Positions 2,790-49,641 of a stretch of 64,000 bases of DNA are shown one piece after another. The number at the start of each line of letters is the position of its first letter. Within the stretch, counting starts at the first letter, position 1. The notes under the pieces were generated by a model. It did no database searches and was not told the DNA's origin. It saw nothing but the letters and a program-made list of their open reading frames with translations. Position numbers and translations under genes: made by a program. Origin of the DNA: Sphingopyxis granuli NBRC 100800 (GTDB lineage Bacteria; Pseudomonadota; Alphaproteobacteria; Sphingomonadales; Sphingomonadaceae); the NCBI RefSeq assembly GCF_001591045.1, contig NZ_BCUA01000004.1, forward strand, positions 1 through 64,000, read 5' to 3'.

Positions 2790-2936
2790 ATCACTCTCCT
2801 TGGGGCTCGGGACATGGTTGCAAGCGGGACGGGTGAAGGCAAGTGCTAGTTGACGTGGACGTAAGCGTAAACCCGTGCAGCCTGCCTGCGCGGTCGGTTC
2901 GGGACCGGGCTCATCCTTTTCTTCGACAAGAAATCG

Positions 2937-3007
2937 TTCCCCGGCGAAAGCCGGGGTCCAGATGGTGCAGCGCTGCCCCGCGTGGACCCCGGCTTTCGCC
3001 GGGGAGC
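2937..3007. repeat. Long palindromic intergenic repeat, copy 1
   Basis: Two long arms, each containing CCCCGGCGAAAGCCGGGG or its complement and ending in GTCCA/TGGAC, face each other around a short centre. A second copy lies at 7101-7170. The remaining gap between the hydratase and purC (2790-3221) holds further short GC-rich stem sequences near 3120-3185 and no convincing gene. Repeats of this form are common between genes in sphingomonad genomes. Confidence 0.85.
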
Positions 3008-3221
3008 AGGTCGGGCCTGCCTGAGCAGCATACGGACCTGATGCGTTCGGGGTGACGGGCGCGAGGCACGCATCTTTCCTACCTTTCCGCCCCGGCGACG
3101 CGAGGGATGACGCGCCGCGACTTTGCCGCTATAGGCCGCCTCGTCGCCCCGGCGCCGCGCCTCGCCTGAGTCGCTTGTCGCCGGGGTCATTCTTTTGGTT
3201 CCGGCAGAAAGTGTTTGCGCC

Positions 3222-7044: not shown

Positions 7045-7100
7045 GGGGGGGAGGGCCGGCGGCCTTGCGTCGGTTGGCATCCCCTTTCGACAAGTAGCTG

Positions 7101-7170
7101 TTCCCCGGCGAAAGCCGGGGTCCACGCGGGGCAACGCAATGCCATCTGGACCCCGGCTTTCGCCGGGGAA
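7101..7170. repeat. Long palindromic intergenic repeat, copy 2
   Basis: A near-perfect long inverted repeat made of the same arms as the copy at 2937-3007: each arm holds CCCCGGCGAAAGCCGGGG or its complement plus TCCA/TGGA, here with perfect 24-base arms. Both copies are preceded by TTCGACAAG. The rest of the 6987-7284 gap shows no gene. Confidence 0.85.
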
Positions 7171-7284
7171 CAGGCCCTTACGTGTGTGAAGGATATATAC
7201 GCCCCTGCGTCTGCCCACCCCGCCGCGGGTAGCGAGCAAGGTTCGCAACTCTTGCTGTCCCGCTCGCAAGCGTGGGAGTTCGAT

Positions 7285-18100: not shown

Positions 18101-18375
18101 TTGCCGGGCGTGAGGAAGATCCGGTCGTCGCTCGTTCCCGTGGCTTTCGAAATGCGCTCAATGAAAAAGTCATACGCCTCGTCGTGCGGATCCACGCCGG
18201 CTGCCTGAACCAGATCACCTGTGAAAAGGATCAAGTCGGGCTGGCGATGCCCGATGCACAGCCTCTTCAAATCATCGATCAAAGCGTCGACAACGATGCC
18301 CTGTTCCCGCGCCTTGCGCTGGGCATAGTGGAAGTCACTGATGTGCAGGACGGTGATGAGATCAGGATCAGTCAT
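15181..18375 (-). CDS. Metallophosphoesterase-STAND NTPase fusion
   Basis: A 1064-residue protein, using the ATG at 18375. The N-terminal calcineurin-like metallophosphoesterase has HISDFH (Asp14, His16), FTGDLV, PGNHD (90-94), TTHHPL and FGHMHD (253-258). A STAND-type NTPase follows: P-loop-like EYGRTSLL at 424-431, with Arg where Lys is usual, and Walker B VMVDDV (494-499). A long helical C-terminal part presumably senses a trigger. Phosphoesterase-STAND fusions are known among predicted antiphage proteins, where the N-terminal enzyme is the effector. It is divergent from the DUF4062 gene, suggesting a common function. Confidence 0.85.
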   Translation of the reverse strand: MTDPDLITVLHISDFHYAQRKAREQGIVVDALIDDLKRLCIGHRQPDLILFTGDLVQAAGVDPHDEAYDFFIERISKATGTSDDRIFLTPGNHDLSRGVTEDAAETHVEWRGDLGKGDEMARLNQRFDAGEYDELTREKFAAFNDLQAYLRGDDHEHVRKMENAFVRVDRVESLNVDIVTFNTAVFSTGGSDKFDGDERNLAVPEYAIMEAVKALTPKSLRIFTTHHPLASLSEATSRYLEDQIAEHAHYHLFGHMHDPKPRSVSGLRGEVFTDQAGAIFTARKEYYNGYSLITIDRATDHTEVLIRSYYKERNEFDEGTDIHKGGKWYKDNDARQHFRKIAAPVDFEKFKAHLSGEFKRRLDEEDAAPGGDAELHHRFVEPPMMKTSIIDTKMTDAPAEIEEPVSFGDLVSSSGNSIIYARPEYGRTSLLRELRHRMVRDIEGKDFPRLPVIIDFSQVAQNVNKVLGLIRGGAAPLPDGHDAEGLLKLGHLCVMVDDVQFDDSRRMQLLREFVKAYPKARYVFSSNRDAVYRFGAKINPEMPVRFDFIELQELKRRNMRQLITKFEHCDDVEGWLDRLQDQFREINLPFTAANGTILLEIFGSNGKFAPVNRAVLMEQFVETTLEKAAENQSYRATFDFNNKANLLSYVAAWMARENQYVPLREDVRGAMRKCLDEMGLDAPPLDELMDEFLSAKIFERRSDDRVAFRYRGVMEYFIAYRMTVDPAFKEWVMEDDRYLTFVNELLYYAGKTRNDPRLIDLVRDRHMQIFGEATKHLQPIDLNIFDTYILPKDDGGETIEDAAERIATPPLTPEEKDEEFDVDMPKDEEGRQEVFRPKITDVHEALMFSLMLYSGLLRNFEHMTDAKKREHMGHIWRSWGTVMLESARLAPRLASERKVRMNGILYELQAPKGMSDAAVLKQMLLTLPHAMIRMIATNMGTEKLRKQLIEPDLEEGLEPKIIKMFRVGLITELRLDETPGAVSDLVSTFRDNMYLLWSFVVHLSHLRRHDRIREDHVRALMPPTASAIADLGGGSKKERSDNRSKQMARLQREQLLLKMKRGKT

Positions 18376-18493
18376 TCTAACCGCATAAGGAACAGTCAGT
18401 GAACATGCAATATGGCTGGAATCTCGAAACCACTTGTTTGGCAATAGCAATTCGACGTCCTACAAGGTTGGTCAAATTAGGGAGAATTCGTGC

Positions 18494-18643
18494 GTGACGA
18501 TCGAGAAGACATTGTTCGCAGACGAACATAAGATGCGCGGCGCTATGGACGCAGGTGAATATCCGCGCGCACTCACTACCGAAGCAGTGAAGACCAACAT
18601 TCGACAGGCCGAAGCGCTCGCTGGCGAGATGAGAGCAGGATGA
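18494..18643 (+). CDS. Small ORF resembling an HsdM N-terminal fragment
   Basis: A 49-residue ORF starting at GTG 18494 with GGAGAA seven bases upstream; its stop overlaps the next gene's start as ATGA. The segment LFADEHKMRGAMDAGEYPRAL resembles the helical N-terminus of type I methylase HsdM (pattern L-x-LRG-x-MDA-x-x-Y). It could be a relic reused as a coupled leader peptide, or chance similarity. It clearly drives translational coupling to the DUF4062 gene if translated. Confidence 0.5.
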   Translation: MTIEKTLFADEHKMRGAMDAGEYPRALTTEAVKTNIRQAEALAGEMRAG

Positions 18644-19749
18644 AGGTCTTCGTCAGCAGCGTCATGAACGGGTTTGAGGACTACCGAGAGGCAGCCTTCG
18701 CCGCGATCCTGAGTCTCGATCACGATATCCTCCGTGCTGAGGACTTCCCGGCTTCGACCATTCCGTCACGCGTGGCATGCCTGCAGGGTGTGCGGGAAGC
18801 AGACCTCGTCGTCCTGATACTTGGCGAACGGTATGGTTGGTCCGAAACTCAATCGGGTATCTCGCCTACGCACGAGGAGTTCCGCGAAGCGGCAGCAGAG
18901 GGGAAAGTCATTCCGTTCGTGCAGTCCGGCGTGAGGCGCGAGGAGGCACAGCAACGGTTCGTCGACGAAGTCGAGGACTATGATTCTGGGATGCACCGCG
19001 GCCGAACTTTCCAGTCGCCGGAGGAGCTACGCACCGAAGTGACGCGTGCAATCGCCAGGCATCAACTTTCTGCTGCCACCACGCCGGTGGACGTCCCCGC
19101 GTTAGTGGGAAAGGCACGAAGCATGATTCCTCCCGAGGAATGCGGCATCGTGCGGATGTCCGGCCCCCTGCTGCATCTCGCGGTCGTCGGTGGTCCAACA
19201 CAGACCATCCTGCGCCCCAGCGAGATTGAGGATCAGTCGCTGGTGGACGGGATGGTCGCAGACCTGTCCTCCCCCAACGGCTATTTCTCATACCGGCGTC
19301 GGAGCGAACCGCGTTTCGATCACGGCGCACTCTGCATCGAGCAGGAGAATGGGGCCGGCCTGCGCATCGATGAGGCTGGCGCGTTGCTTTTGTCCGTGCC
19401 GATTGAGGAAGCGACTGGGCACCTCAAGCCCCTGATCGAGGAACATGTCGGTCAGGCGATCAAGGAAGGGCTCGCCTTTGCGGACAGGATGCTAGAGAAG
19501 TTCGACCGCACGCAGCGGTTAACGCGCATCGTAATCGCTGCCGACATCAGCTCGAGCGGCGTGTTCGGATGGCGCACGGCCAGCCAGCAGGCGGCCAGTC
19601 CCGATTCCATGCAGATCGCGATGGACAGATCAGCGTCGGGTCCCGTCATGTTCAATCCGCCCGATCAGGCGCGGATGGTGTTACGGGCCGAGCGTAACCG
19701 CATGACCGAGGACATGCTTGCGCTACTCCGGCGTAAATACAAGAGCTGA
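18640..19749 (+). CDS. DUF4062 domain protein
   Basis: A 369-residue protein. Residues 1-90 match DUF4062: MKVFVSSVMNGFEDYREAA, SRVACLQGVREADLVVLILG and ERYGW, a Rossmann-like fold related to TIR/nucleoside-binding domains. DUF4062 is often the N-terminal domain of STAND defence proteins. Here it is a separate protein with its own unknown C-terminal domain (about 150-369). It lies divergent from the metallophosphoesterase-STAND gene. Together they look like a two-part sensor/effector unit; that is inference. Confidence 0.8.
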   Translation: MKVFVSSVMNGFEDYREAAFAAILSLDHDILRAEDFPASTIPSRVACLQGVREADLVVLILGERYGWSETQSGISPTHEEFREAAAEGKVIPFVQSGVRREEAQQRFVDEVEDYDSGMHRGRTFQSPEELRTEVTRAIARHQLSAATTPVDVPALVGKARSMIPPEECGIVRMSGPLLHLAVVGGPTQTILRPSEIEDQSLVDGMVADLSSPNGYFSYRRRSEPRFDHGALCIEQENGAGLRIDEAGALLLSVPIEEATGHLKPLIEEHVGQAIKEGLAFADRMLEKFDRTQRLTRIVIAADISSSGVFGWRTASQQAASPDSMQIAMDRSASGPVMFNPPDQARMVLRAERNRMTEDMLALLRRKYKS

Positions 19750-19876: not shown

Positions 19877-21475
19877 TTAGCCAAATGAATCGCTAAGCCG
19901 CGTAATGCCTTTTGAGAATGCGTAGCGCACCACCATCTCAATGAAATGGACATTGTCGACGTCCCTGTAACTCAGTGCAGCCGACGCCTTCGACCCCTCG
20001 GGCCCGTTGATTATGAATGAACCGGAAAAGGTCGTCACCGTCACGTCGCCCCAAGCGTATTCAGCGGGCTCGTCCCCCAAGAATTTCTTCCGGCGTAGAA
20101 TGACAGAGGTGTCCTTTATGATCGCATTGCCGGCATGCAACGCGCGGCCGCTACGCAAATGCGATAAGATCCCGCTGACAATTTGTTCCATCAGCGCCTT
20201 CCATAAGCACCCGATAAACGCCTCGAAAATGCGACGATTGCTAAACTCGACCTTCGTGGTCTGACTGCCATCATTCCAAGAAATCAAATATTCGGTTCCA
20301 GTCGGGATACCATTGACCGAATTGTTAACTCCGCCCCAGCGCACGCTTCGAACGTCTTCCAAAGCTGTTACTTTGCCATTCCATTCAAGTCCCGAGGGAC
20401 TAATCGCCAGCCGGGTTTTGAAAATCTTGCCAACGTCAGCTGCATAGGAAATCTCGGCTTCACGCGCGCTGGCCTGTGTCTCGAGATCATCGAGGGCAAT
20501 GCCATCTTTGGCAATTGCTCCCGCAACTTGTGGAAGAGCCGAGAAGCTGGAACCCACCATTTCCGAGATTTGGCGCGACTCGTTGATAAGATTATGCTTG
20601 TTGAAGAGATCGATCGAAAGGTCGCGAATCATAAACGCCAGATTTTCGCTATCTCTGTCTTCCCGTCCCCGCAAAGTCGCGCTCATTTGCATTGGGTAGG
20701 TCAGCTCCTCCCACGTAATCAACAACGCAGCTAGTGCATTGATGATTGGCGGAAGAGCATCGGGACGATCGCCAGCCAAGGTGCGGGCCTTTTCGATTAG
20801 CCTCTCAGCCGTTGCGACCTCTTTCGCCAAGAAGGGTTGGGCGCGAAGTGCGTAGTCGTCGATAATTTCATGCAGGAAACGCGGAAAGAAATGTGCGCCA
20901 GCTGCATCCTTTGCCAACTCATACATGGCTTCCGCCATTTCCGCTGTAGGAGCTTGATCGAGAGCAGTGATAACGGCTCTTCGCCAAGCATGTTGTCTGG
21001 ACTGAAACGCGTCGGCAGTGATCTGCTCATTTGATATCGCCGGCAGTCCGGCGATTTCGCGATCCTCGTTAATTTCACGAACAACCTGATCAAGCTGGGC
21101 TTCTTCGACCGCCGATACGACTTTAGTAACAAATCGCCTAAGCTCCGACATGGACGCCGGCGGCACCTTCGAAGCTACCATGATCAAGGCATTAGCCAGA
21201 GCCAATCCAGACAACGGGAGATTTTCTACCTCGCCAATACTGGTTGCCTCAACTGCCTTCATCGCAGTGCCAGGGGCGACACCGGGAAACCAACCAAATT
21301 CAGCTTCGACACGCCGCCTCGGATTGATCAACGTTGCACGGGCTTGCTGGCAGGTATCGGGATCGTGGTAGAGCGACTGATTGTCAGCTGCTTCCATGAT
21401 ACGATGGGCGTTGTCTCGGGTGCTTACGGCAAGTAATGCGAACGGATTCACTGCCAAACTGGTATCACTGGACAC
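19877..21475 (-). CDS. Divergent J-domain-like co-chaperone
   Basis: 532 residues from a GTG at 21475 with GAGGGG upstream; the frame also extends to 21514. The N-terminus (NPFALLAVSTRDNAHRIMEA ... INPRRRVEAEFGWFPG) looks like a degenerate J domain: NPF.LL start, helix with Arg/His, and a terminal NPRRR..E..W motif as in DnaJ-type helices. No HPD triplet is evident, although YHDPDT occurs nearby. The C-terminus has a WNDGSQTTKVEF/YRDVDNV PH-like region repeated twice. It is the last gene of the GrpE-Hsp70-AAA operon. Confidence 0.6.
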   Translation of the reverse strand: MSSDTSLAVNPFALLAVSTRDNAHRIMEAADNQSLYHDPDTCQQARATLINPRRRVEAEFGWFPGVAPGTAMKAVEATSIGEVENLPLSGLALANALIMVASKVPPASMSELRRFVTKVVSAVEEAQLDQVVREINEDREIAGLPAISNEQITADAFQSRQHAWRRAVITALDQAPTAEMAEAMYELAKDAAGAHFFPRFLHEIIDDYALRAQPFLAKEVATAERLIEKARTLAGDRPDALPPIINALAALLITWEELTYPMQMSATLRGREDRDSENLAFMIRDLSIDLFNKHNLINESRQISEMVGSSFSALPQVAGAIAKDGIALDDLETQASAREAEISYAADVGKIFKTRLAISPSGLEWNGKVTALEDVRSVRWGGVNNSVNGIPTGTEYLISWNDGSQTTKVEFSNRRIFEAFIGCLWKALMEQIVSGILSHLRSGRALHAGNAIIKDTSVILRRKKFLGDEPAEYAWGDVTVTTFSGSFIINGPEGSKASAALSYRDVDNVHFIEMVVRYAFSKGITRLSDSFG

Positions 21476-22232
21476 GACGGCGCCCCTCTGATTCAAGGAT
21501 ATAACGACGCCCATTGACGTTCGCTTCGGCTAGCGGGCGCTGCGAAGCGCGAATTTGCCGGTTCGAGCATGCGCCGTTGTATTTTCTGACGGCTGCGTTG
21601 AAGTCGTCAACGTTCCGATTGAAGCGGTCAGAATCTACGCCTTGTAGACTTTCAATCTCCGATTTTTGCGCCGACAATCTAATGTCTTCCGCCATACAAT
21701 ATTGCATCTCAGCCATAGTGAGAGTTGCGCCGCCGGGAGCAGGCATCATCTCTTCGGATGGAGCCGCAACTGGCACGTAATCCGATGTCGAGTCTCCGTC
21801 GTAAGGCGTATCTATGCCAGCGCCGCTTTCGACGCCATTGGTCGGCGCAGCCGATCCATCGGTCGCCATGTATTCGCCGGAAGCGTCAGTGGTGTCATCT
21901 TCGCCGTCGGATGCGGTTGAGTAGTCTTGCGCCGTTTCGTCATAATCAGGTGAAGATACGTCATCTACTACGGCGCGTGTGCCAGCGAAGAAGCAAGATT
22001 TGATCGCTAGGATTAGCGCGATTGCAATGACCCATCCTCCGATCTTCTTAATCCCGCTATACAACGCGCCTCCATCTTGATCGACTGGCTCAGAAGGTGG
22101 TCCGGCCCGCGGAGTTGGGGTCTGCAGAGGACGGGGAGCGGCTGCAATTTTATCAGCGGAAGCGATCGCCGCGTCGGCATCCGTCGCGAACGATGAGAGG
22201 CCGTCGAAACCAGTGGATATAGGTGGCAACAT
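21465..22232 (-). CDS. Single-pass membrane protein of the chaperone operon
   Basis: A 255-residue protein. A Pro/Ala-rich N-terminal segment is followed by one membrane helix at about 66-84 (GGWVIAIALILAIKSCFFAG). A long acidic Asp/Ser/Thr linker (90-165) leads to a C-terminal domain with MQYCMAEDIRL, DRFNRNVDDFN and YNGACSN. That two-Cys domain is common at the end of small zinc-ribbon/membrane proteins. It starts 3 bp after the AAA gene stop and overlaps the J-like gene. Confidence 0.75.
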   Translation of the reverse strand: MLPPISTGFDGLSSFATDADAAIASADKIAAAPRPLQTPTPRAGPPSEPVDQDGGALYSGIKKIGGWVIAIALILAIKSCFFAGTRAVVDDVSSPDYDETAQDYSTASDGEDDTTDASGEYMATDGSAAPTNGVESGAGIDTPYDGDSTSDYVPVAAPSEEMMPAPGGATLTMAEMQYCMAEDIRLSAQKSEIESLQGVDSDRFNRNVDDFNAAVRKYNGACSNRQIRASQRPLAEANVNGRRYILESEGRRRVQ

Positions 22233-22234
22233 CG

Positions 22235-23599
22235 TTAGAAACCTATGCGTCGCTTATCTTCAGGATGTCGAGATGGACACCGCGACAATGCGGTCCCGAT
22301 TTCCTCGTCTCCCACGCGATCTTTGCGCGCTTTGGCGGCTAGGCGACCTGCTTCTCGCACGACGAACGCCGCATCAGACAACGGTCGATCTGCCAGCCTT
22401 TGAGCGAGGCGCGGCACATCAGTGACGTTATTTGGAATATTTTCAAGCAGCGCTTCGAGCAGACCGGCAACCTCATCCGCGCCTGCATGATCGACGTGAA
22501 TAACGTGATCAAAGCGGCCTCGCCGGAGGATCGCTGAATCGATCGCGTCGATCTGGTTCGTCATGCCTATCACGAGAACCCGATTAGCGCTCGCTTCTGG
22601 AATGCGCCTTAAAAACTCGGCAATCTCTTCAACATTGTGTTGATGCGCCCCGGATTCCCGCCTGTTCAAAAAAGCATCCATTTCGTCAATAATGACAACT
22701 GCCGGGGCCGACTTCATCGCTTCAGAAAAGATTTCGGCAACCTTGCGTGAAGTCTCGTGGATGTAGGGACTAGCGACACTTGATGCTTCAATAGAATAGC
22801 TGGGCCAGCCGAGGTGCTCGACCAGGCGTTCAACCGCATAGGTTTTGCCGCAACCAGTCGGCCCCTCAAGGACAATGCCGCCTGGAAATCCGATGCCCAT
22901 CGCAGCATAACGATCCTCGTCGGCGACGATGTCCACCACGTGCTCATTAAAGAACGCGGAGAGTTCGCGGCGGCCAGGTAGGGCGAATGGCCCCAATTGC
23001 TTTACGCTGTCAGAATTATGAAGCCCCGTGTGCGGCTTGGTCGATGCCTTCCGGCTGCGTCCGAATGGCGTCTTTGGAGCTATTCCCGCAATACCTAAAA
23101 GATTGGAGATTTGCTCGTCCGTCGTCATTGGCATGATTTTCTGGAGAGCAACCACGTCGTCAGCTGATATATCGACCCCTCCGGTCAGATATGCTCCGAA
23201 TACTTGCGCTTTGCTTTTTCGCCTGGCGTTCTCGGATGCGATCAATACAAACGCCTCGAATTCCTCGACGAAAATTGCCTCCTCGATCGTTCCGGATACC
23301 CGTGACAATGCCCTAGCGAAGGCCATCGCAGCGTTGGCAGATCGAGGTCGAGGCAGTTTCGATACCGACTCCACGATACCGGTCGCCAATATGAAACGAT
23401 AACCCCTCCCGCTATAGGTGAGATGGGACCATTCGAGTTCATCCTCTCCGATCAGCGACGAGGGATCTGCGACAATGACTGCACGTCTGCCGTCCCTGGT
23501 CACATGGATCCACGCTACCTCGTCAAAAGTAAATGTCGCGCGGCCGAGCTGAACACCATCTGGCAATTGGAAGCCTTGAGGAAACGGAGATCCCTTCAT
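22235..23599 (-). CDS. AAA ATPase of the chaperone operon
   Basis: A 454-residue protein with one classical AAA module: Walker A GPTGCGKT (246-253), Walker B VVIIDEMD (301-308), sensor-1 Asn in GMTNQID (about 348) and arginine-finger motif LRRGRFD (359-364). The first 230 residues form a unique region. It resembles FtsH/Cdc48-type ATPases but lacks a protease domain, so it may unfold or remodel proteins. Its start and the Hsp70 stop overlap by one base (TGATG), so production is coupled to Hsp70. Confidence 0.85.
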   Translation of the reverse strand: MKGSPFPQGFQLPDGVQLGRATFTFDEVAWIHVTRDGRRAVIVADPSSLIGEDELEWSHLTYSGRGYRFILATGIVESVSKLPRPRSANAAMAFARALSRVSGTIEEAIFVEEFEAFVLIASENARRKSKAQVFGAYLTGGVDISADDVVALQKIMPMTTDEQISNLLGIAGIAPKTPFGRSRKASTKPHTGLHNSDSVKQLGPFALPGRRELSAFFNEHVVDIVADEDRYAAMGIGFPGGIVLEGPTGCGKTYAVERLVEHLGWPSYSIEASSVASPYIHETSRKVAEIFSEAMKSAPAVVIIDEMDAFLNRRESGAHQHNVEEIAEFLRRIPEASANRVLVIGMTNQIDAIDSAILRRGRFDHVIHVDHAGADEVAGLLEALLENIPNNVTDVPRLAQRLADRPLSDAAFVVREAGRLAAKARKDRVGDEEIGTALSRCPSRHPEDKRRIGF

Positions 23600-26076
23600 C
23601 AGCCCCTCACAATGTTGGCCATAGCGAGCATTTCCTCTTCTCCAATTCGCGTAAAGCGCATGTTGTCGAGCTGAATGAGGATATCGCGCAACTTATCGAA
23701 ATCTTGGCGTGCCAGGGCTGTCCGGCCTTTGTCTGTCAATCGTCCGTATTGAGCTTGATCGGCGAACTGCTCAGGGCTCTGAGCAAGCCATTGGAAGCGA
23801 GCAACGATAAACTCGTCCGAACGCCATAGGATGGCGATATTTTTGGAGCGAAGCTCAGACAAGTGGGATTCGAAGTCGTTTCCGTTGATGTCGATCGAAT
23901 GCTGCGCCGTGCGCACCAAGGCATCGAATGCTTGCTCTTCATCCGGACGCGCCAGATCGCGGGCCAAGCCATCGAAGCTCTCGATGATACCGTTCAGATC
24001 TACTTGGCGAATCAACTTCAGATGATCACGGCGCAGGATTGAGATGTCCTTCCGAGCCGCCCTAATTTCATCAAGCGCCTGCTTGGTTTCCTCCGGTTCT
24101 GCCCGGTCGACGTCGATTGCTCCCGCCTTGGCAATCCTGTCACGGATTTGATTTATGCGAGGGTCGTCGATGTGAGCCGCAAAAGCGTCCAGTCTCTCAA
24201 TGGTCGTCTCGGCCTCCACCGCGACAAGGGTCGCAGCTTGTCCGTAATCCAGCTGCGCGTCCTGACGCGCGTAGTAGTTGTGACCACTTGAGAACGAGCC
24301 GCCAATATCGGGCACCGAAATGTCGAGCCGAATGTTGCCTGCGTCAGTAATCTCGTATTCGCAATGAACCTCAGCGCCGGTTGCAATCATGCCTTCATCG
24401 AAGTCTGATCCGGAAACACGAAATGTGCCGATGAAGATATTATCTTCGATCGGTTCACGTATCGATCCCTCCCAAAGCTTGAAATTCAGTGCGCCCGGGC
24501 TTCCTGCTCGCAGGGTTTCGCCTGCGCGAAACTTAAGCACGCCCTTCTTCGGAAGCGGATCCCCTGCGCGCACGAGAGGCTCGAGGCCTCGCATTCCGTT
24601 CCGACCCTCAATTACCTCAATGCTGATCGTGTGCGATGCTGGAATTGCATCGATGGAAGCCGCGGTCCGGCTAATCGTGATACGATCGTCTGGGATGCTC
24701 ACTGGACCGCCGTCGGCGTCGAAAACGAAGACACGAAAGGCATTCTGCCCTGGCTTCGACAGAGGGAGGTCAATCGACGCACCATCCTTCAGCAATTGCC
24801 GACCGGACGACCAACCTGTGTCCAGACTGTCCACTTGGAATTCGCCGACCATGCCCCCGACTTTCCTCGCGACGATTTTAGCCGACGCATCAGGAGTCCT
24901 TGCGACATAGGCGAATTCGAGCCCGTTCGAAGAGAGCGAACTACGGGCAGATTTCCTGCCGCGACTTTCAGTTTCCCAATTGATCGATTCCGCGAAAATA
25001 GCTGCACCTTCTGCAACCGCCGTCATCGGGTTAACGTCAGTGGAGGCAGAAATGCCAAGCTCGAATGCAACCTTGTCGCGAAGCGGCTTATATTGTGTCG
25101 GACCTCCCACGAAGACTACCCGATCAACATCGTGTGCGCTGATCCCGGCCTGATCCAGTGTTTCGCGCGCCGAATGAATGGCTTTCTGCAAGATGGGGTC
25201 GATGAGCGCATCGAGACGGGCACGGTCTAGGGGGATGTCAACATAGACTTCCTCTCCTGACCGATCCCGGACTCCAATCTCAGTCTCGGACAGCGCGATG
25301 ACCGTATCTTCGGCGTGCGAAAGCTCGATCTTCGCTTTCTCTGCGGCCCAGGTCGCCATGCGGACCAACGTGTTGAACATCGGATTGGTCGCGAAGTCGT
25401 CACCGATGTCGAAGCTATCCACCAGCCAAGGCTTCACCACCTCATCCATGAGCGCGCGATCGATGTCGCGTCCACCGCACATTTCAACGCCGCCGTGAGC
25501 GAGCAGGCTGACGCGTCCCTTCATGCTCTGCGCGATTGCGATATCGAGCGTTCCTCCGCCCAGATCGAACACGAGAAACGTGCCATCACGGTTGCGCTGG
25601 CGCATGATGCTCATCACTGCGGCAACGGGTTCCTGCATGAGCGCGACGCGACCAATCCCAGCGCCCTCCGCGGCGGTCAATGTTGCGTCCTTCTGCATCT
25701 GATTAAATGCCGCCGGCACGGTAATTACCGTGCCCGTATCTCCGCCATTGCGCATTGACTCTGGTAGATACCCAAACAGGGTTCGTAAAATCTCGGCAGA
25801 GCATTCCTCGGGCGTCATTGTCTTATCGAGCGCCTTAAGTTTGATAGGCGTGCTGGTGCCCATCATGCGCTTAAAAAGAACCGCTGCGTTATCCGGATTA
25901 CGAGCCGCATTATTGTAGGCGCGCGTCCCGACGAACTTATTGCCTCGTCGATCGAGGAATATTGCGGACGGAGTCACATCATGCTGCTCCGGGCTTTTGT
26001 AAAGAGACACGGATTCGCCGTCAAAACTCGCGATGGCGCTATTGGTAGTTCCTAGATCGATGCCAACGTAATTCAT
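23599..26076 (-). CDS. Hsp70-family chaperone
   Basis: An 825-residue protein, clearly longer than DnaK (about 640). Nucleotide-binding domain: VGIDLGTTNSA (residues 4-14), TVPAAFNQMQKDAT, LVFDLGGGTLDIAIA and VVFVGGPTQYKPLR, all intact for ATP hydrolysis. The first substrate-domain part is divergent, and a long helical C-terminus (about 620-825) replaces the usual lid. It is coupled by overlap to the downstream AAA ATPase and follows the minimal GrpE gene by 4 bp. It is probably a specialised chaperone rather than the housekeeping DnaK. Confidence 0.92.
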   Translation of the reverse strand: MNYVGIDLGTTNSAIASFDGESVSLYKSPEQHDVTPSAIFLDRRGNKFVGTRAYNNAARNPDNAAVLFKRMMGTSTPIKLKALDKTMTPEECSAEILRTLFGYLPESMRNGGDTGTVITVPAAFNQMQKDATLTAAEGAGIGRVALMQEPVAAVMSIMRQRNRDGTFLVFDLGGGTLDIAIAQSMKGRVSLLAHGGVEMCGGRDIDRALMDEVVKPWLVDSFDIGDDFATNPMFNTLVRMATWAAEKAKIELSHAEDTVIALSETEIGVRDRSGEEVYVDIPLDRARLDALIDPILQKAIHSARETLDQAGISAHDVDRVVFVGGPTQYKPLRDKVAFELGISASTDVNPMTAVAEGAAIFAESINWETESRGRKSARSSLSSNGLEFAYVARTPDASAKIVARKVGGMVGEFQVDSLDTGWSSGRQLLKDGASIDLPLSKPGQNAFRVFVFDADGGPVSIPDDRITISRTAASIDAIPASHTISIEVIEGRNGMRGLEPLVRAGDPLPKKGVLKFRAGETLRAGSPGALNFKLWEGSIREPIEDNIFIGTFRVSGSDFDEGMIATGAEVHCEYEITDAGNIRLDISVPDIGGSFSSGHNYYARQDAQLDYGQAATLVAVEAETTIERLDAFAAHIDDPRINQIRDRIAKAGAIDVDRAEPEETKQALDEIRAARKDISILRRDHLKLIRQVDLNGIIESFDGLARDLARPDEEQAFDALVRTAQHSIDINGNDFESHLSELRSKNIAILWRSDEFIVARFQWLAQSPEQFADQAQYGRLTDKGRTALARQDFDKLRDILIQLDNMRFTRIGEEEMLAMANIVRG

Positions 26077-26080
26077 TCCA

Positions 26081-26455
26081 TCACTTCCTAAGCATCATCG
26101 TGCCAGTCCGGCGCACGCCATCGGCACCCATGACAACGGGTTCCATCATTTGGTCGACGAACAGATCATCCTCAGGGCCAAAGTCGGCAGCATTGAGCGC
26201 CGTGGCAGCCATGCCGGGCTCATACGGTTGCCCTTCAAGATCAACGATGCGCAATCCGAGTGGCGAGAGCGTGTCCTCCAGCTTGCGCTGAAAATAGCGG
26301 ATCTGATTGGATTGTCGTCCTGCCGATTTGATGTCCCGGGTATCGATCGATCGTTGAAACATGCGGCATAGTCGCCAGCTTTCGACTGCGAGGCCGATTA
26401 GCAAACCCTCGGTGTCAACTTGTCCGTCCACGTCCGCCCGCCCCTCAATTCGCAT
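26081..26455 (-). CDS. Minimal GrpE-like nucleotide exchange factor
   Basis: A 124-residue protein, the first gene of the chaperone operon. A helical N-terminal half (about 12-60) is followed by LGLRIVDLEGQPYEPGMAA and ends with VMGADGVRRTGTMMLRK. This parallels the GrpE beta-wing, where a G-x-x-F/Y-D/E-P motif and a final R-x-A-x-V strand contact Hsp70. The usual long coiled coil is shortened. Being next to a dedicated Hsp70 supports the assignment, but identity is low. Confidence 0.65.
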   Translation of the reverse strand: MRIEGRADVDGQVDTEGLLIGLAVESWRLCRMFQRSIDTRDIKSAGRQSNQIRYFQRKLEDTLSPLGLRIVDLEGQPYEPGMAATALNAADFGPEDDLFVDQMMEPVVMGADGVRRTGTMMLRK

Positions 26456-44830: not shown

Positions 44831-45076
44831 ATGTCCCGTCAAATTTGCGAAATCTCATCCCTTCAACCTGACCGCGATGAAGCAAGCAGAAGCGCCGACC
44901 CAGTCGAAACGCACGAAGCGGGAAATTTTGCCGTGGAAGGTTTCGATCACGATGCGGCTCAATGTGACAATCAGAATTTGGATGAGCGGCGTCGCCGTTC
45001 ATGGACGCGACGTCGTCCCAGATGCCGAACCTCGTGGTTTCGGATTATTTACAAAGCCGGAGGACCCCACTCATGA
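44831..45076 (+). CDS. Candidate 81-aa leader gene coupled to tnsA
   Basis: ATG 44831 is preceded by CGGAGG at ideal spacing, and its TGA overlaps the tnsA ATG as ATGA. The product has an acidic N-half and a strongly basic C-half (ERRRRSWTRRRPRCR). No family is recognised. A competing frame, 44877-45098, has higher GC at third positions, so which frame is translated is open. Confidence 0.4.
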   Translation: MSRQICEISSLQPDRDEASRSADPVETHEAGNFAVEGFDHDAAQCDNQNLDERRRRSWTRRRPRCRTSWFRIIYKAGGPHS

Positions 45077-45945
45077 GCGCAATTGTTGGCAGCGTTGACG
45101 GACCGTTCGCATTCCATCCTGTTGGTGGGGAAGCCGGTGAGCGGATTAAAATACCTCTCTCGCAGAAGGTCGTGCGCGGAGTTGAAATCCATCGTCGGCT
45201 GCGAGATGTATCGTTCGTGCCCGATCGCACCCGGTTGGTCCCGCGAGTTGACTTGCCCGTCGCAGATGAACGTCTGGCGAGCATGGGCGAGATAATCATG
45301 GAGGCCAATGGGGGCTCGATCCGCACCCGCTCCGGCGATCGGGCGCATGAGAATGGCTGGTGGCCGTCTCGTAAGCGGGGTCGATTGCAACACTGGGAGG
45401 GGACTGCCCAGCGCTTCGCTCTCCTCGCAATGGAATGTGATTTTACGGTGGAGTGGGCTCAGTCCGAGCCTTGCCTTCTTCGGTTTCCAATCGGCGATGA
45501 GTGGTTTGAGTGGTATCCGGATTTGCTTGTTCGGCGGTTCAACGCTCCTGATGAATTGTGGGAAATTAAGCGTGACGAACGCCAGCTTGAAGACGAACGC
45601 TACCGACTCAAGCTTGCAGGGGCTGATGAGATTTGCCGCCGTGTAGGGATCCGCTTTCGCCTTGTCATGGCGCACGAGATCGTTGCCGATCGCTTTCACC
45701 GGGATAACCTCGAACTCTTCGCAGCACGCCGGTTCGTGAACATTCGGCCAGAGCACATGCGCCGCTTCGAGGCATTTGGCATTCAGAATGGCCCAAGCAC
45801 AACATATGGCGAGCTTGCCCGGGTCATCGATCCGCAATGTCCCACCCGGGGCGCCGCCATAATCCAGGGACTCACGGTCCTGCGCCGGGTCGAAATAGAC
45901 CTGCGCCCATTACTCACAAACCGAACACCGCTCTGCATCCATTGA
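45073..45945 (+). CDS. tnsA: TnsA-like transposon endonuclease
   Basis: 290 residues from ATG 45073 with GGAGGA nine bases upstream. The restriction-endonuclease-like core is visible: Glu109 in HWEGTAQR, Asp150 in WYPDLLV, then Glu164 and Lys166 in LWEIKRD. TnsA makes the 5' cuts so that the element moves by cut-and-paste rather than by replication. A C-terminal helical domain (about 180-290) would contact TnsC. It is the first tns gene. Confidence 0.88.
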   Translation: MSAIVGSVDGPFAFHPVGGEAGERIKIPLSQKVVRGVEIHRRLRDVSFVPDRTRLVPRVDLPVADERLASMGEIIMEANGGSIRTRSGDRAHENGWWPSRKRGRLQHWEGTAQRFALLAMECDFTVEWAQSEPCLLRFPIGDEWFEWYPDLLVRRFNAPDELWEIKRDERQLEDERYRLKLAGADEICRRVGIRFRLVMAHEIVADRFHRDNLELFAARRFVNIRPEHMRRFEAFGIQNGPSTTYGELARVIDPQCPTRGAAIIQGLTVLRRVEIDLRPLLTNRTPLCIH

Positions 45946-46112
45946 TCGGATTCACTGTGTGACTTGATCCCGATGCCACCCGTGGGTGGCGACCCTCAGA
46001 AATCGTGGCGTCATTTGGCGTCCCGTTCCGGGTTTGCAGGCTCGGTTCATTCGAGATCGTGCCTGCGGTCGGCGACATGCTGACGCACGCTCTCCTCACG
46101 AGGAGAAATAGC

Positions 46113-48437
46113 GTGAACGATCTGCCTTTGCCCGAGTATAATTATCCCGTCGGCACAATCATTGAGATTGACGGCCGCCCACATCGACCGCCCGTCCAGC
46201 ATATACCTGGCCGACTTACAATCATCGATTGTCACACCGGCCAGCCGTTCCTTGTGCCAGATGGCAACGGCGGCACTATGATGCCCACTCATGACGATTT
46301 CGATCGCCTTCTCATCGACGATCGTATCGAGGTCAAGTTCGCGCAGAATGTCCTCGCGTCGAGGGCGCTCGCCACGAGAGCCGAATGGGACCTGTCGGAT
46401 CTAGAAGAGTTCGATCCGGGCATTCGCAAGGTTATTGCACAGGTCGAATTGCTCGACTCTAAAGGCGTAAAAAACGGTGTGCTCGCCATTGCGAAAGGTC
46501 TGGCTGAACACTGGAGGGAGGAACTGCGGGAGCAGTTTGGCGACCCCGATCGTCCCGAGAACATAAAGCGCTGGCGGATGAAGAGCGGCAAACCAGGTGC
46601 CCGCGATTTGCGCTTGCTTGTCCGCCTCAGTGGTAACGTTGCGCGCAGGCCCCACGACGCCGAGATACCAAAAGAGATCCGCAACAAACACGCAATGGCT
46701 GCAATGGCAGCCAACGACAGAATCAACATGAAAGCGGCATTTTCGCTCGCCCAAGCAGAGTTGATAGAGGTGAATGAGGGGCGCAGTGCGCTGTATGGGA
46801 AGCCTGAAACTCCATACCCGCTTTTCAGCTATGCTACTTTTCGTCGCGACTGCATTGCAATCGATGGGTCAGAATTCGTTGCAGAGCGCGATGGCAAGCA
46901 GATGGTGGAAAGCGCGATGCGCGGGGGCGGGAAGCCGCTCACGGCGAGCCGAATTCTTGAGAAAGTGATCATCGATCACACTCCTTTGGACGCGTTCGTC
47001 GTCGTTGACCTAGAGCGCGATGTTGTCGCCGGCCGTCCTTGGCTGACATTGGCAATCGATGTTTATAGCCGAGCCATCGTTGCTTGGGTCATAACCTTTC
47101 GCCCACCCAGCTACTGGACGGTATGTGAGTGCCTTCGCCGCATGAACCTTCCGAAACGGCCTCCAGCTGCGGATGCCAATAGATATCCTATTCTCAAACG
47201 TATTTGTGGGAAACCGACAGAGCTGATCCTTGATAATGCAAGCGAGTTCACCGGTCATGGCCTCGAGGACGCGGCGAAGTGCGGATCATTCTCCGTGCGC
47301 TTCTGTCCGATAAAGAAGCCGCGCTACCGCGCAATCGGCGAGCGGGCGATCGGCACTTTCCAGCGTCGCATGCTCGAGCACCTGCCGGGCGCGACCCGAC
47401 CTATCGCTGAGACAGACCGCTCTGGTCACGATGCCGCAGACAAGGCAGTGGCCACCATGAATGAGTTGGAAGCGCTCGCAAACAAGACGGCGGCGGAATT
47501 TCACGTTGAACCGCATGAGGGCATCAACAATCTGCAGCCTGCTCTTTTATGGCAGCGGTCAGCAAACCGCCACGGCATCGACGTGATGGCTGATCTTCGC
47601 CGATTCCGCCTTGAAACCTTCGAGACCAAGTCGAACGTAAAGGTCACGAAAAGCGGGGTGCGCGTATTTAATGGCCTTCGGTATCACTGCGCCATTGGCG
47701 TGCCGCGCCTGATCAACAACTGTCTGCGCTTTGAACCTCGACGCCAAAAACGCGTCGATGCAACGATCCATACCAAGATTAAGTTCGATCCAGATAACAT
47801 TGCCGTCATCCACGTGTGGGACAAGACGACAAAAACCTACGTAGACCTCAAATGCGCTGACGAGACCTATGCCGATGGCATGCCTCTCTGGTTTCACAAA
47901 GAACTGGTGGAACTGGCCAAAGCGGATGCCACTGGCGCCCCCAAATCATCCGCAGTTTCTCGCCGCAAATCCACGCCTCAAAAGGCAGATGCCGAACTCA
48001 AACGCATCGCCGAGACCGAGGACGACGAAATCACCCCCAAGGGCTTTAATACCGAGGCAGAGCGGCTAGAATCTCGCGCACGTCGGATTGCGGCCATTCG
48101 AGCGATCAAACCGGGTGCCAAGCATCGCGAACGATTAACGCTGGCTCGACTCTACGATATTCCGCGGGTTCGCGCGATTACCGGCAATATTGTCCATCTC
48201 GACACCGATTTTGCGCGATCGGCCACTACCGACGACTTTATAGCCCATGATGTCTCAGCACTAACGATGCTCGATCAAGAAATCTTGGCGCCACGCCCCG
48301 GTGTTTCTGCCGCGCGGCCTCGCACAGGGAAGGGGGACCGGCGCGCGCTCGGCGCACCGCGCAAGTCCGAAGTTCCGTTTGACCAGAATACGTCGGCAAC
48401 CGCGACCCGAAGCCGCCGCCGCAACGCTCGCGGATAA
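46113..48437 (+). CDS. tnsB: TnsB-like DDE transposase
   Basis: 774 residues from GTG 46113, preceded by GAGGAG; an in-frame GTG at 46005 lacks a good ribosome site. An N-terminal DNA-binding part is followed by the integrase core with Asp288 (IIDHTPLD), Asp374 (LILDNASEF) and Glu410 (AIGERAIGTF). The spacing of 35 residues between the last two is canonical. A beta-barrel and a long basic C-terminal tail follow. It binds the end repeats and joins 3' ends to target DNA. Confidence 0.93.
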   Translation: MNDLPLPEYNYPVGTIIEIDGRPHRPPVQHIPGRLTIIDCHTGQPFLVPDGNGGTMMPTHDDFDRLLIDDRIEVKFAQNVLASRALATRAEWDLSDLEEFDPGIRKVIAQVELLDSKGVKNGVLAIAKGLAEHWREELREQFGDPDRPENIKRWRMKSGKPGARDLRLLVRLSGNVARRPHDAEIPKEIRNKHAMAAMAANDRINMKAAFSLAQAELIEVNEGRSALYGKPETPYPLFSYATFRRDCIAIDGSEFVAERDGKQMVESAMRGGGKPLTASRILEKVIIDHTPLDAFVVVDLERDVVAGRPWLTLAIDVYSRAIVAWVITFRPPSYWTVCECLRRMNLPKRPPAADANRYPILKRICGKPTELILDNASEFTGHGLEDAAKCGSFSVRFCPIKKPRYRAIGERAIGTFQRRMLEHLPGATRPIAETDRSGHDAADKAVATMNELEALANKTAAEFHVEPHEGINNLQPALLWQRSANRHGIDVMADLRRFRLETFETKSNVKVTKSGVRVFNGLRYHCAIGVPRLINNCLRFEPRRQKRVDATIHTKIKFDPDNIAVIHVWDKTTKTYVDLKCADETYADGMPLWFHKELVELAKADATGAPKSSAVSRRKSTPQKADAELKRIAETEDDEITPKGFNTEAERLESRARRIAAIRAIKPGAKHRERLTLARLYDIPRVRAITGNIVHLDTDFARSATTDDFIAHDVSALTMLDQEILAPRPGVSAARPRTGKGDRRALGAPRKSEVPFDQNTSATATRSRRRNARG

Positions 48438-48445
48438 TTCACGCA

Positions 48446-48470
48446 CCCGCCCGCACCGGTTGCGGGCGGG
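48446..48470 (+). promoter_or_regulatory. Intercistronic hairpin between tnsB and tnsC
   Basis: CCCGCCCGCA-CCGGT-TGCGGGCGGG is a perfect 10-bp GC stem in the 49-bp gap, followed by GGCACCAAAAAAGG. It lacks a T-run. It probably protects or attenuates the transcript, changing the TnsB:TnsC ratio. Confidence 0.6.
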
Positions 48471-48486
48471 GGCACCAAAAAAGGGC

Positions 48487-49641
48487 ATGTTCATGACGTA
48501 TCAGATTGAAGATTTTCGCGACGATCCCGATCACGACGAGCAGCAGATTCGAGACCTTGCGGTCGCCGGAAACCTGAATGCAACCAGCTTACCCAATAAT
48601 CGAAACCGTAGGAAAACCGTTCGTCAGCTTATCGCGGAACGCCGCTTGGCAGTTCGCTCCATCCGTGTGGAATATGGCCCGCAAGTGGAGTTGGAGGACG
48701 CATTCGACGAAATACTCGACGGCGCGCGTCTGCTGCGCAAAGCTAAGCTTCCGCAGCCGGCGGTTCACCTGCTTGCCGAAAGCTTCTCGGGAAAGAGCGT
48801 AGGCGCTATCAGTTACGTGCAGAAGCGCGCCAAATGTGGCAGTGAACATGATGGCATTACGCCCGTCGCCTATTGCCGGATCGACACTGACGGCACAATC
48901 GGTTCCGTTGCGGCGGATATACTGAAGGCACTTGGGGAAAAGCGGCCAGACGCCTTGGCGCCCGATAAACGTTGGGACAGGGCCCGCCACGCGATCCGTT
49001 CCCACGGCGTTTCTCTCCTAATCTTCGATGAGTTCCAGCGCGCGGGTCGTCGCCCCACAATTAGCCCCTCAATCGCTGGCAAAATCCTGGACATAATGGA
49101 TAGCGGAGATTGTGGCGTGGCATTCCTTGGCAAAAGGGACGCCATTAATGTGTTTAAGTCCTGCCCCGATTTGATGAACCGCTTGGATGCACCAGTCCAA
49201 ATTCCACCGCTTCGTTGGGCAACAGACCGAGAAGAATTCGTGGCGTTTGCTGACGCATTCGATCAGGCTCTGGTTGACGCTAATATCACCAAGTTCAAGT
49301 CAGGACTGGGGGAGTGGGCCACCGCGCAAAGGCTACTCGAAGCGTCAAACGGTCTTATCGGTCAGTTTAGCCGAATAGTCGAGACCGCTGTCATAATGAT
49401 TACGCGCGATGGTAACGACGCTATCACTCAGGATGATCTGCGCGACGCGGTTCAGGAATGGTCAATTGGCAACCAGCGCATCAGTTATAATCCATTCGTT
49501 ACGTCATTATCGGACATGGATGCCACCGAAAATACCAGTCCGACGGGATCGAGTTTTGAGGAATTCGGAAAGGCCAAATTTAGTTCTGGCCCGCGCAGGC
49601 GAGCCGCGAACGGTTCCAATCACGGTGAGGGCGAGCTGTGA
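48487..49641 (+). CDS. tnsC: TnsC/TniB-like AAA+ regulator
   Basis: 384 residues from ATG 48487. It is an AAA ATPase of the TniB/TnsC type: Walker A AESFSGKS (97-104, Ala instead of the first Gly), Walker B LLIFDEFQ (177-183) and a sensor region with GVAFLGKRDAI. It links TniQ-marked targets to the TnsAB transposase and enforces target immunity. The last bases overlap tniQ as GTGA. Confidence 0.9.
   Translation: MFMTYQIEDFRDDPDHDEQQIRDLAVAGNLNATSLPNNRNRRKTVRQLIAERRLAVRSIRVEYGPQVELEDAFDEILDGARLLRKAKLPQPAVHLLAESFSGKSVGAISYVQKRAKCGSEHDGITPVAYCRIDTDGTIGSVAADILKALGEKRPDALAPDKRWDRARHAIRSHGVSLLIFDEFQRAGRRPTISPSIAGKILDIMDSGDCGVAFLGKRDAINVFKSCPDLMNRLDAPVQIPPLRWATDREEFVAFADAFDQALVDANITKFKSGLGEWATAQRLLEASNGLIGQFSRIVETAVIMITRDGNDAITQDDLRDAVQEWSIGNQRISYNPFVTSLSDMDATENTSPTGSSFEEFGKAKFSSGPRRRAANGSNHGEGEL

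What the first reader, a model, noticed from the sequence alone, without database searches (positions are those of the whole stretch)
19877..26455. GrpE-Hsp70-AAA-membrane-J operon: candidate undescribed chaperone-based system
Five tightly coupled genes encode a minimal GrpE, an 825-aa Hsp70, an AAA ATPase, a single-pass membrane protein and a divergent J-like protein. This is a self-contained chaperone machine with a membrane anchor, carried among defence genes on a transposon. I know of no named defence system with this composition. A function in phage sensing, abortive infection or protein quality control is inferred.
Basis: partly seen in the sequence, partly recalled or inferred. Interest (0 to 1): 0.85.

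Follow-up and report, generated by a model that had tools for sequence, protein, structure and literature searches.

The report
Wall-tethered Hsp70 operon in defence islands
Some bacteria carry, among mobile anti-virus genes, a dedicated protein-handling machine built from an unusual Hsp70 chaperone, a motor protein and membrane proteins that touch the cell wall; it looks like an untested way of stopping viruses.

Summary
The five-gene operon is real. Relatives fill 80 kept loci from other genomes. Of 51 loci with 6 kb or more downstream, 51 have the J-like gene and 50 the AAA gene. It is sporadic: 5 of 397 genomes of its family, 3 of 398 of its phylum (both counting its own), 1 of 5,426 E. 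coli genomes by DNA search. Flanks of 20 loci gave 281 PADLOC model matches against 10 in same-contig controls.

New here: the membrane proteins share an N-terminal tag (GFxGLSSLVSD) in 43 of those 51 loci, two or more tagged proteins in 10, and some carry wall domains (PG_binding, SLT). In four sister loci AAA and tag are both absent; in three the J-like protein is fused to the membrane protein. Hsp70 keeps its catalytic residues but lacks the J-docking Arg167 (30 of 30 sequences), and the J-like partner lacks HPD (66 of 66).

Best reading: a mobile, probably anti-phage chaperone/unfoldase acting on tagged wall-binding proteins. Mechanism inferred, untested. Nearest published kind: predicted GAP1-N2 GTPase/HSP70/GrpE systems.

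The parts
26081..26455 (-). 124-aa GrpE-like small protein, first gene
   Evidence: Found just before Hsp70 in 75 of 80 loci by clustering, in 79 of 80 loci by HMM. GrpE likeness remote: hhalign 70%, E 4e-5, reversed-profile control 0.1%; best PDB profile hit GrpE 4ani, E 0.62.
23599..26076 (-). 825-aa Hsp70
   Evidence: Pfam HSP70 1.4e-58; PDB profile match to DnaK, best 2.1e-82 over positions 1-362.
24988..26076 (-). Hsp70 nucleotide-binding domain, residues 1-363
   Evidence: Catalytic D8, K70, E171, D194, T199 (DnaK numbering, recalled) kept in 30 of 30 aligned sequences; R167 is Ala in 29 and Val in 1, N170 is Gln in 30.
24277..24987 (-). Inserted stretch of about 100 residues, then SBD-beta-like region (residues about 364-600)
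   Evidence: Alignment with the genome's own DnaK puts its VLLLD linker at window residues 472-476; SBD-beta match to DnaK in the PDB alignment is not significant (domain 2).
22235..23599 (-). 454-aa classical AAA ATPase (one AAA module, FtsH/PAN-like core, no HExxH protease site)
   Evidence: PF00004 3.9e-30; Walker A, Walker B and RxGRFD in 68 of 68 homologues of 400-600 aa, HExxH in 0 of 68, 61 matches to a SPYIHET-type stretch.
21465..22232 (-). 255-aa tagged single-pass membrane protein
   Evidence: TM residues 59-77; family in 64 of 80 loci by HMM; alignment A3.
22173..22211 (-). N-terminal tag of the membrane protein, residues 8-20 (GFDGLSSFATDAD; usual form GFxGLSSLVSDVD), cytoplasmic side inferred
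   Evidence: Tag found in 55 of 80 loci; in 43 of 51 loci with at least 6 kb downstream, two or more tagged proteins in 10 of 51.
21468..21743 (-). C-terminal (inferred periplasmic) domain with two invariant cysteines, C179 and C222
   Evidence: Invariant columns in A3, 20 sequences.
19877..21514 (-). 545-aa J-like protein
   Evidence: Family present in 51 of 51 loci with at least 6 kb downstream; no Pfam match at E 1.
21275..21451 (-). J-like N-terminal region of the 545-aa protein (NPFxxLGxTxRD...LTNPRxRLxAExAWLPG), no HPD
   Evidence: A9 alignment of 24 sequences; HPD in 0 of 66 homologues; hhalign against DnaJ 1.2%, not above controls.
45001..49641 (+). Tn7-like transposition module in the same window (TnsA-like, TnsB-like rve, TniB/TnsC-like)
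   Evidence: TnsA-like N domain 0.0021, below cut-off; rve 2e-6 (below cut-off) and TniB 2e-10; TnsB similarity to the Shewanella element 1e-9.

Best explanation
A horizontally mobile, envelope-tethered chaperone/unfoldase system, most likely anti-phage. Shown: a dedicated Hsp70 with an intact ATPase site and a changed J-docking face; a remotely GrpE-like and a HPD-less J-like partner; an AAA ATPase; and one or more single-pass membrane proteins with a shared N-terminal tag and, in some, wall domains; all in defence islands. Inferred: (1) Hsp70, GrpE-like and J-like proteins form a dedicated complex using a contact other than HPD-Arg167; (2) the tag lies in the cytoplasm and is the handle held by the J-like/Hsp70/AAA complex, which is why tag and AAA are both missing where J is fused to, or lies beside, the untagged membrane protein; (3) infection (phage proteins, or disturbance of the envelope during genome entry) shifts the Hsp70 cycle, and the AAA pulls on the tag; (4) this changes the state of the wall-binding or wall-cutting domain across the membrane, blocking phage entry or lysis, or killing the cell. 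Probability that the operon serves conflict with mobile elements: about 0.75. Probability of steps 2-4 as written: about 0.3.
For: First three genes conserved in order across most of 80 loci. Sporadic: 5 of 397 family genomes, 3 of 398 phylum genomes (both include the window's own), 1 of 5,426 E. coli. Identity disagrees with taxonomy: 62% to a gammaproteobacterial copy (L007), 59% to copies from Sphingobium and Croceicoccus. Defence context: 281 PADLOC model matches in 153 flank proteins against 10 in 175 same-contig control proteins; next annotated gene after Tn7-like tnsE in Shewanella and Aeromonas plasmids, between Zorya and BREX-2 in Polaromonas, beside rdrB and a dptF remnant in E. coli HeN100, beside Gabija-like genes in Sinorhizobium. 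Tag in 43 of 51 loci, also on a divergently transcribed SH3 protein. Wall domains PG_binding_1 and SLT. J-TM fusions (3) or neighbours (1) without AAA and tag in 4 of 4 loci. Catalytic residues kept, R167 and HPD lost.
Against: No phenotype data. Chaperones are generic, and chaperones also travel on mobile stress-tolerance islands (recalled). Tag and AAA are not perfectly linked: eight of 51 loci show no tag by my pattern, seven of them with an AAA (one, L067, does show a tag in alignment A3), the Vibrio rumoiensis plasmid has an AAA and a TM255-type protein without a matching tag, and two of five viral-contig loci show none. GrpE and J assignments are remote; J is not above its controls. No complex or fold could be predicted. 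Of seven tagged-family proteins scanned, two had no Pfam match and one only a sub-threshold one, so wall domains are not general. PADLOC counts are models, not independent genes; mad2 matched in the controls too.
Confidence: 0.5

Rival explanations
1. A mobile protein-quality-control island that protects the envelope or cytoplasm against stress (heat, oxidants, toxic metals), comparable in role to mobile Clp/FtsH/small-Hsp islands (recalled, not from a call), and merely carried in the same integrative elements as defence genes.
For: Hsp70, GrpE-like, J-like and AAA parts are the classical composition of quality control; in the Aeromonas plasmid mercury resistance genes lie just upstream of the tns genes.
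Against: Flanks are rich in defence models; I did not run a matching census of stress genes. Loss of HPD and of Arg167 argues against a general folding cycle; the seven tagged-family proteins scanned show wall domains or nothing clear, no protease or small-Hsp domain apart from a HycI match in L050.
Confidence: 0.2
2. An envelope-assembly or export machine: the cytoplasmic chaperones keep the tagged single-pass proteins unfolded and insert or assemble them into a wall-spanning structure of unknown use, for example adhesion or transfer.
For: Several tagged membrane proteins in 10 of 51 loci, wall-binding domains in some, further downstream genes including an RDD membrane protein in the Shewanella and Aeromonas versions.
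Against: The window version has one small membrane protein and no pilus, pore or secretion match among its five proteins; sporadic and defence-linked distribution.
Confidence: 0.15
3. An accessory of the mobile elements themselves (for example stabilising transposition or conjugation) rather than host defence.
For: Next annotated gene after tnsE in two plasmids; Tn7-like module in the window.
Against: The carriers differ: Tn7-like elements, an integrase island in E. coli, a conjugative plasmid, chromosomal contigs; Shewanella Tns queries at E 1e-5 found no Tns gene in the held flanks of the 80 genome loci, many of them short.
Confidence: 0.08

Closest known systems
GAP1-N2 GTPase-centric conflict systems, HSP70/GrpE/DnaJ theme (Kaur et al. 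2020, PMC7159879; passages and section 29 read)
   Same: Predicted conflict system with HSP70, GrpE and a DnaJ-bearing protein, and membrane components carrying wall-binding domains such as SH3.
   Different: Built on GTPases, GAP1 and FNIII proteins, this theme mostly in actinobacteria and firmicutes; here an AAA ATPase, no GTPase match in the five proteins, no HPD, a shared tag, mostly Pseudomonadota.
Type III CoCoNuT (CnuD Hsp70-like; PMC11090510, passages read)
   Same: Hsp70-like protein in a predicted restriction/defence operon.
   Different: CnuD is tied to McrB-type GTPase and CnuC, and is predicted to hydrolyse ATP poorly; here catalytic residues are complete and no McrB/CnuC belongs to the operon (an McrB/McrC-like pair lies elsewhere in the window).
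Zorya (zorAB; neighbouring in Polaromonas)
   Same: Membrane protein anchored to the wall linked to cytoplasmic ATPases (Zorya's working is recalled).
   Different: No PADLOC Zorya match in the five proteins; works-like analogy only.
IetAS (AAA IetA plus protease IetS)
   Same: AAA core similar: PADLOC IetA 5e-20.
   Different: Match limited to residues 220-440; the NCBIfam anti-phage ATPase model is far below its cut-off (63.6 against 510 bits); no protease partner by Pfam.
DnaK-DnaJ-GrpE with ClpB-type disaggregase
   Same: Composition of Hsp70, NEF-like, J-like and AAA proteins.
   Different: One AAA module rather than ClpB's two (recalled); HPD and Arg167 lost; dedicated membrane partners.

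Membership tests
Hsp70 (DnaK-type) | Nucleotide-binding domain with catalytic residues D8, K70, E171, D194, T199 | tested here: met
   30 of 30 aligned sequences (window, 27 of 80 loci, 2 plasmid loci); Pfam HSP70 1.4e-58
Hsp70 (DnaK-type) | Hydrophobic interdomain linker VLLLD directly after the NBD | tested here: not met
   After an insert of about 100 residues the aligned letters are mostly A-A-(S/T)-(I/V)-D
Hsp70 (DnaK-type) | Substrate-binding beta domain | tested here: inconclusive
   Alignment with own DnaK looks in register; PDB profile domain 2 not significant
Hsp70 (DnaK-type) | J-docking residues R167/N170 | tested here: not met
   Ala in 29 and Val in 1 of 30; Gln in 30 of 30; role of R167 is recalled knowledge
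GrpE | Profile similarity to GrpE | tested here: inconclusive
   hhalign 70%, 25 columns, reversed control 0.1%, reversed DnaJ 3.0%; no Pfam hit for GrpE; PDB E 0.62
J-domain proteins | HPD motif | tested here: not met
   0 of 66 homologues; absent too from the first 90 residues of three J-TM fusions
J-domain proteins | Profile similarity to the J domain | tested here: inconclusive
   hhalign 1.2% against DnaJ, in register by eye over LTNPRxR, but 1.2% against GrpE and 0.6% against reversed DnaJ; no J domain among the five PDB hits at E 10
Classical AAA ATPase | Walker A, Walker B, arginine finger | tested here: met
   68 of 68 homologues of 400-600 aa
FtsH protease | HExxH zinc protease site | tested here: not met
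   0 of 68
IetAS defence system | AAA plus protease partner | tested here: not met
   Only AAA-core similarity; no protease family in the five proteins
GAP1-N2 GTPase/HSP70 conflict systems | GTPase, GAP1 and FNIII components | tested here: not met
   No GTPase or FNIII match in the five proteins by Pfam at E 1; the authors' own profiles were not available
Zorya | MotAB-like ZorA/ZorB | tested here: not met
   No PADLOC Zorya match in the five proteins
Anti-phage defence systems | Demonstrated protection | not testable with these tools
   Only genomic context is available

The most novel reading that the evidence does not exclude
A new class of bacterial immunity in which a dedicated Hsp70 machine with a re-wired, HPD-independent J partner and an AAA motor reads a short N-terminal tag on exchangeable cell-wall-binding or wall-cutting membrane proteins, so that the cytoplasm controls the wall across the membrane upon infection; the tag makes the effector end interchangeable.
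Probability: 0.35. Interest if true: 0.92.

Novelty: new variant of a known kind. Interest (0 to 1): 0.75.

Why it matters
Host chaperones are now known to matter for phage sensing (bNACHT25 needs DnaJ, PMC12169576, abstract read), and Hsp70-bearing conflict systems have been predicted; in the papers that my ten searches listed I saw none built on a dedicated Hsp70 that had been tested. This family is compact, clonable in laboratory E. coli, widespread and has clear mutable sites (tag, Walker A, Hsp70 K70 equivalent), so it makes the question directly testable. It also offers a natural Hsp70/J-like pair in which both sides of the HPD-Arg167 contact are gone, which is of interest to chaperone biology whatever the phenotype.

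Tried and rejected
J545 as an ordinary J protein was rejected on HPD. The 545-aa, 255-aa and 124-aa proteins have no convincing Pfam, NCBIfam or PADLOC match; the profile of the 255-aa family gives only VirB10 at E 0.56 in the PDB, taken as composition; the full J545 profile gives designed helical proteins and others, best E 0.0045, taken as helical chance. IetA membership was rejected (core-only match). A phage origin was considered: 42 phage records matched, none over 80% of the query; the ten listed match the NBD part only, three of them annotated DnaK. Five IMG/VR contigs carry relatives, four with all five genes and one that starts inside Hsp70; I did not check whether these are true viruses. 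The transposon ends were not found in a repeat scan with a 20-base minimum, whose lists were capped. The Shewanella Tns proteins found no relatives in the held flanks of the 80 genome loci, so Tn7 carriage is shown only for two plasmids and suggested for the window.

Limits of the counts. The 80 loci are the best 80 of 120, many on short contigs, two from one bin (L027, L029), and many from metagenome bins (for example L060, labelled Alistipes), so the phylum range beyond Proteobacteria and Desulfopila isolates is uncertain. The genome search scored at most 12 candidates a genome, and the E. coli search was by DNA with the Serratia gene, so these frequencies may be low. In one search the script missed the AAA of L066 (one search shows it) and the tag of L067 (one search shows it). 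Two of the five family genomes carry the AAA-less class (G411) or a fragment of it (G126). The proteins were picked by me for length and variety.
Full report
1. Observation. The five ORFs are at the stated coordinates on the minus strand and nearly touch or overlap. Pfam gives HSP70 (1.4e-58, residues 4-363) and AAA (3.9e-30); the other three proteins have no match near a cut-off. The genome also has a standard DnaK on another contig (930 bits against 195 for this one), so this Hsp70 is an extra copy.

2. The operon is a conserved unit. A scan of genome contigs with the Hsp70 found 120 encoding stretches, of which the best 80 were kept. By iterated profiles 79 of 80 loci have the 124-aa gene, 72 the AAA, 66 the 545-aa gene and 64 the membrane-protein family; many contigs are cut. 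The 124-aa gene precedes Hsp70 in 75 of 80 loci by clustering, and the AAA follows it in about 70; the order of the membrane-protein and J-like genes varies, and in a few loci (L066, L067, L075) the J-like gene is on the other strand. Among the 51 loci with 6 kb or more downstream, 51 have the 545-aa family, 49 by script the AAA (50 with L066), 47 the membrane family. Hsp70 identity runs from 50 to 79%, over nearly the whole length in most loci.

3. It is mobile and rare. In the window's own family 5 of 397 genomes have the 124-aa gene, the window's included and two of them with the AAA-less class or a fragment of it; the ten other same-genus genomes listed have none. In the phylum 3 of 398, again with the window's own. 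In E. coli 1 of 5,426 genomes by DNA similarity to the Serratia copy. Thirteen plasmid records carry a relative over at least 80% of the Hsp70, at 27 to 61% identity. Identity does not follow taxonomy: 62% to a gammaproteobacterial copy, 59% to Sphingobium and Croceicoccus.

4. It sits in defence islands. I compared ORFs of 220 aa or more around 20 loci (153 proteins, 295 kb, operon families removed) with ORFs from 20 stretches of 15 kb elsewhere on the same contigs (175 proteins, 300 kb). At E 1e-15 or better the flanks matched 165 + 116 PADLOC models, the controls 3 + 7. Among the 25 + 25 flank models shown are Type I methyltransferases, Hachiman HamA/HamB, ZacABC, TmtA and HEC-05, each with a best E below 1e-100; the best control match is 1.6e-34. 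mad2 matched in flanks and once in a control. These are counts of models, several of which hit one protein, so they show enrichment but not a number of genes. Named cases: Tn7-like tnsABCDE upstream in Shewanella and Aeromonas plasmids; between Zorya and BREX-2 in Polaromonas pPNAP01; with rdrB, a dptF remnant and integrases near tRNA-Phe in E. coli HeN100; beside UvrD-helicase/ATP-dependent endonuclease (Gabija-like, my reading of the names) and a methyltransferase in Sinorhizobium. In Aminobacter the flanks are mixed, with an ABC transporter and a relaxase. In the window itself: Type I RM, Mrr_N-McrB/McrC, a STAND metallophosphatase (PDC-S60 2.3e-92) and a TnsB/TniB module.

5. Hsp70. Against the genome's own DnaK, 30 of 30 sequences (window, 27 of the 80 loci, two plasmid loci) keep the catalytic residues; the residue equivalent to R167, known (recalled) as the partner of the HPD aspartate, is Ala in 29 and Val in 1; N170 is Gln in 30. 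The VLLLD linker is changed; about 100 extra residues lie between NBD and a region that aligns with the start of the substrate-binding domain. So ATP turnover is probably intact while the classical J contact is not.

6. J-like protein. Its first 80 residues (NPFxxLGxTxRDxRRRIxELAEExSLxLDxDxCxKARSxLTNPRxRLxAExAWLPG) resemble a J domain by eye; profile comparison is not above its controls (1.2% against DnaJ, 1.2% against GrpE) and the PDB search found no J domain. HPD is absent from 66 of 66. In a sister version the start reads more J-like (LSVTPSATKEEIAEAFDEKL in Aminobacter), though Pfam does not call it DnaJ. The loss of HPD together with the loss of R167 fits a pair that has moved to another contact; this is inference, and so is the J ancestry.

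7. GrpE-like protein. hhalign with 30 GrpE sequences: 70%, E 4e-5 over 25 columns round the GxPFDP stretch; reversed GrpE 0.1%, DnaJ 0.1%, reversed DnaJ 3.0%. Remote but plausible; Pfam finds no GrpE.

8. AAA. Walker A, B and arginine finger in 68 of 68; no HExxH; 61 matches to a SPYIHET-type stretch, which I read by position as an aromatic pore loop. It can probably thread polypeptides and does not carry its own FtsH-type protease.

9. Membrane proteins and the tag. Many family members share a short N-terminal motif GFxGLSSLVSDVD before a low-complexity linker and a TM helix; one TM is predicted in 66 of 79, none in 13. Tagged proteins occur in 55 of 80 loci, and in 43 of the 51 with 6 kb downstream, two or more in 10. 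Past the membrane the proteins differ: a two-cysteine domain, PG_binding_1 (L035, L020, L050), an SLT transglycosylase domain (L021), and a tagged protein annotated as SH3, divergently encoded in Polaromonas. Of seven tagged-family proteins scanned, three had PG_binding_1, one SLT, one a sub-threshold T2SSM_b match, two nothing. That the tag is cytoplasmic is inferred from the wall domains lying after the TM.

10. Natural fusions. Aminobacter pAM01, Sinorhizobium medicae T10 and an unnamed same-family genome (L188) encode one protein of J-like part, TM and two-cysteine domain; S. meliloti has the same parts side by side; a fourth fusion is seen as a fragment on a short contig (L156). In the four loci read in full (L089, L179, L180, L188) no AAA of this family and no tag was found. 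The fusion says that J-like and membrane proteins act together; the joint absence of tag and AAA suggests that the tag is the handle for the AAA or its docking on J. The link is not perfect: eight of 51 loci lack a tag by my pattern, seven of these with an AAA (one of the seven, L067, shows a tag); Vibrio rumoiensis also has an AAA without a recognised tag, and so have two viral-contig loci. Pseudomonas hygromyciniae pairs Hsp70 with a TPR protein whose C-terminal part matches the J-like family, and a Haliscomenobacter plasmid has Hsp70, AAA and TerB beside BREX genes, so the Hsp70 core has several partner sets.

11. Mechanism. Best reading: cytoplasmic Hsp70/GrpE-like/J-like/AAA complex held at the membrane by tagged wall-binding proteins; infection changes the chaperone cycle; pulling on the tag alters or frees the wall domain, which blocks phage passage or kills the cell. 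Parts and context are shown; complex formation, trigger and outcome are inferred.

12. Known systems. Ten searches of the open-licence library gave no description of this operon in the listings I saw; most subscription papers and bioRxiv are outside it. DefensePredictor's main text has no mention of Hsp70, DnaK, chaperone, GrpE, DnaJ or peptidoglycan (term search only). The nearest is the HSP70/GrpE/DnaJ theme of GAP1-N2 GTPase systems with wall-binding membrane parts (Kaur et al., section 29 read); our operon lacks the defining GTPases by Pfam. CoCoNuT Hsp70s differ. Hence: a new variant of a predicted kind, chaperone-based conflict systems, with a real chance of being a class of its own.

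Noticed in passing
window 15181-18450 (-): 1,089-aa protein with calcineurin-like phosphoesterase and nSTAND_NTPase4; PADLOC PDC-S60 at 2.3e-92, NCBIfam DS8_antiphage below its cut-off: a STAND-type defence candidate next to the operon.
   Followed up: no
window 18640-19749 (+): DUF4062 protein (9e-22) with no PADLOC match at E 0.1, convergent with the operon.
   Followed up: no
window 29752-33158 (+): Mrr_N-AAA_5 (McrB-like) plus McrC-like pair, followed at 33768-40227 by HsdM, a sub-threshold HsdS and HsdR genes of a Type I RM set.
   Followed up: no
window 2922-3010 and 7086-7174: Palindromic repeat of 89 bases, 81% alike, REP-like.
   Followed up: no
L085 19452-23259 and L086 19578-23385: Six further downstream genes (214-aa protein, secreted-looking proteins, a second tagged protein, RDD membrane protein); the 214-aa family occurs in 14 of 80 loci.
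   Followed up: partly
80 loci: The membrane-protein and J-like families fall into one BLAST cluster (130 members in 70 loci), and J-like proteins of about 670 aa have an extra N-terminal stretch of about 100-130 residues; the reason was not worked out.
   Followed up: no
L181 5345-12870: Haliscomenobacter plasmid: membrane protein with a possibly GrpE-like end (by eye), distant Hsp70, AAA and TerB genes beside BREX genes; a Bacteroidota analogue.
   Followed up: partly
L180 6344-10746: Sinorhizobium medicae copy with the Hsp70 gene interrupted by an ISNCY element.
   Followed up: no
L090 7513-12493: Pseudomonas hygromyciniae plasmid: Hsp70 with a small upstream gene and a TPR protein whose C-terminal part matches the J-like family; no AAA or tag found.
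   Followed up: partly
L190-L194: Five IMG/VR contigs carry the operon, four with all five genes; whether they are viruses or misfiled islands was not checked.
   Followed up: partly
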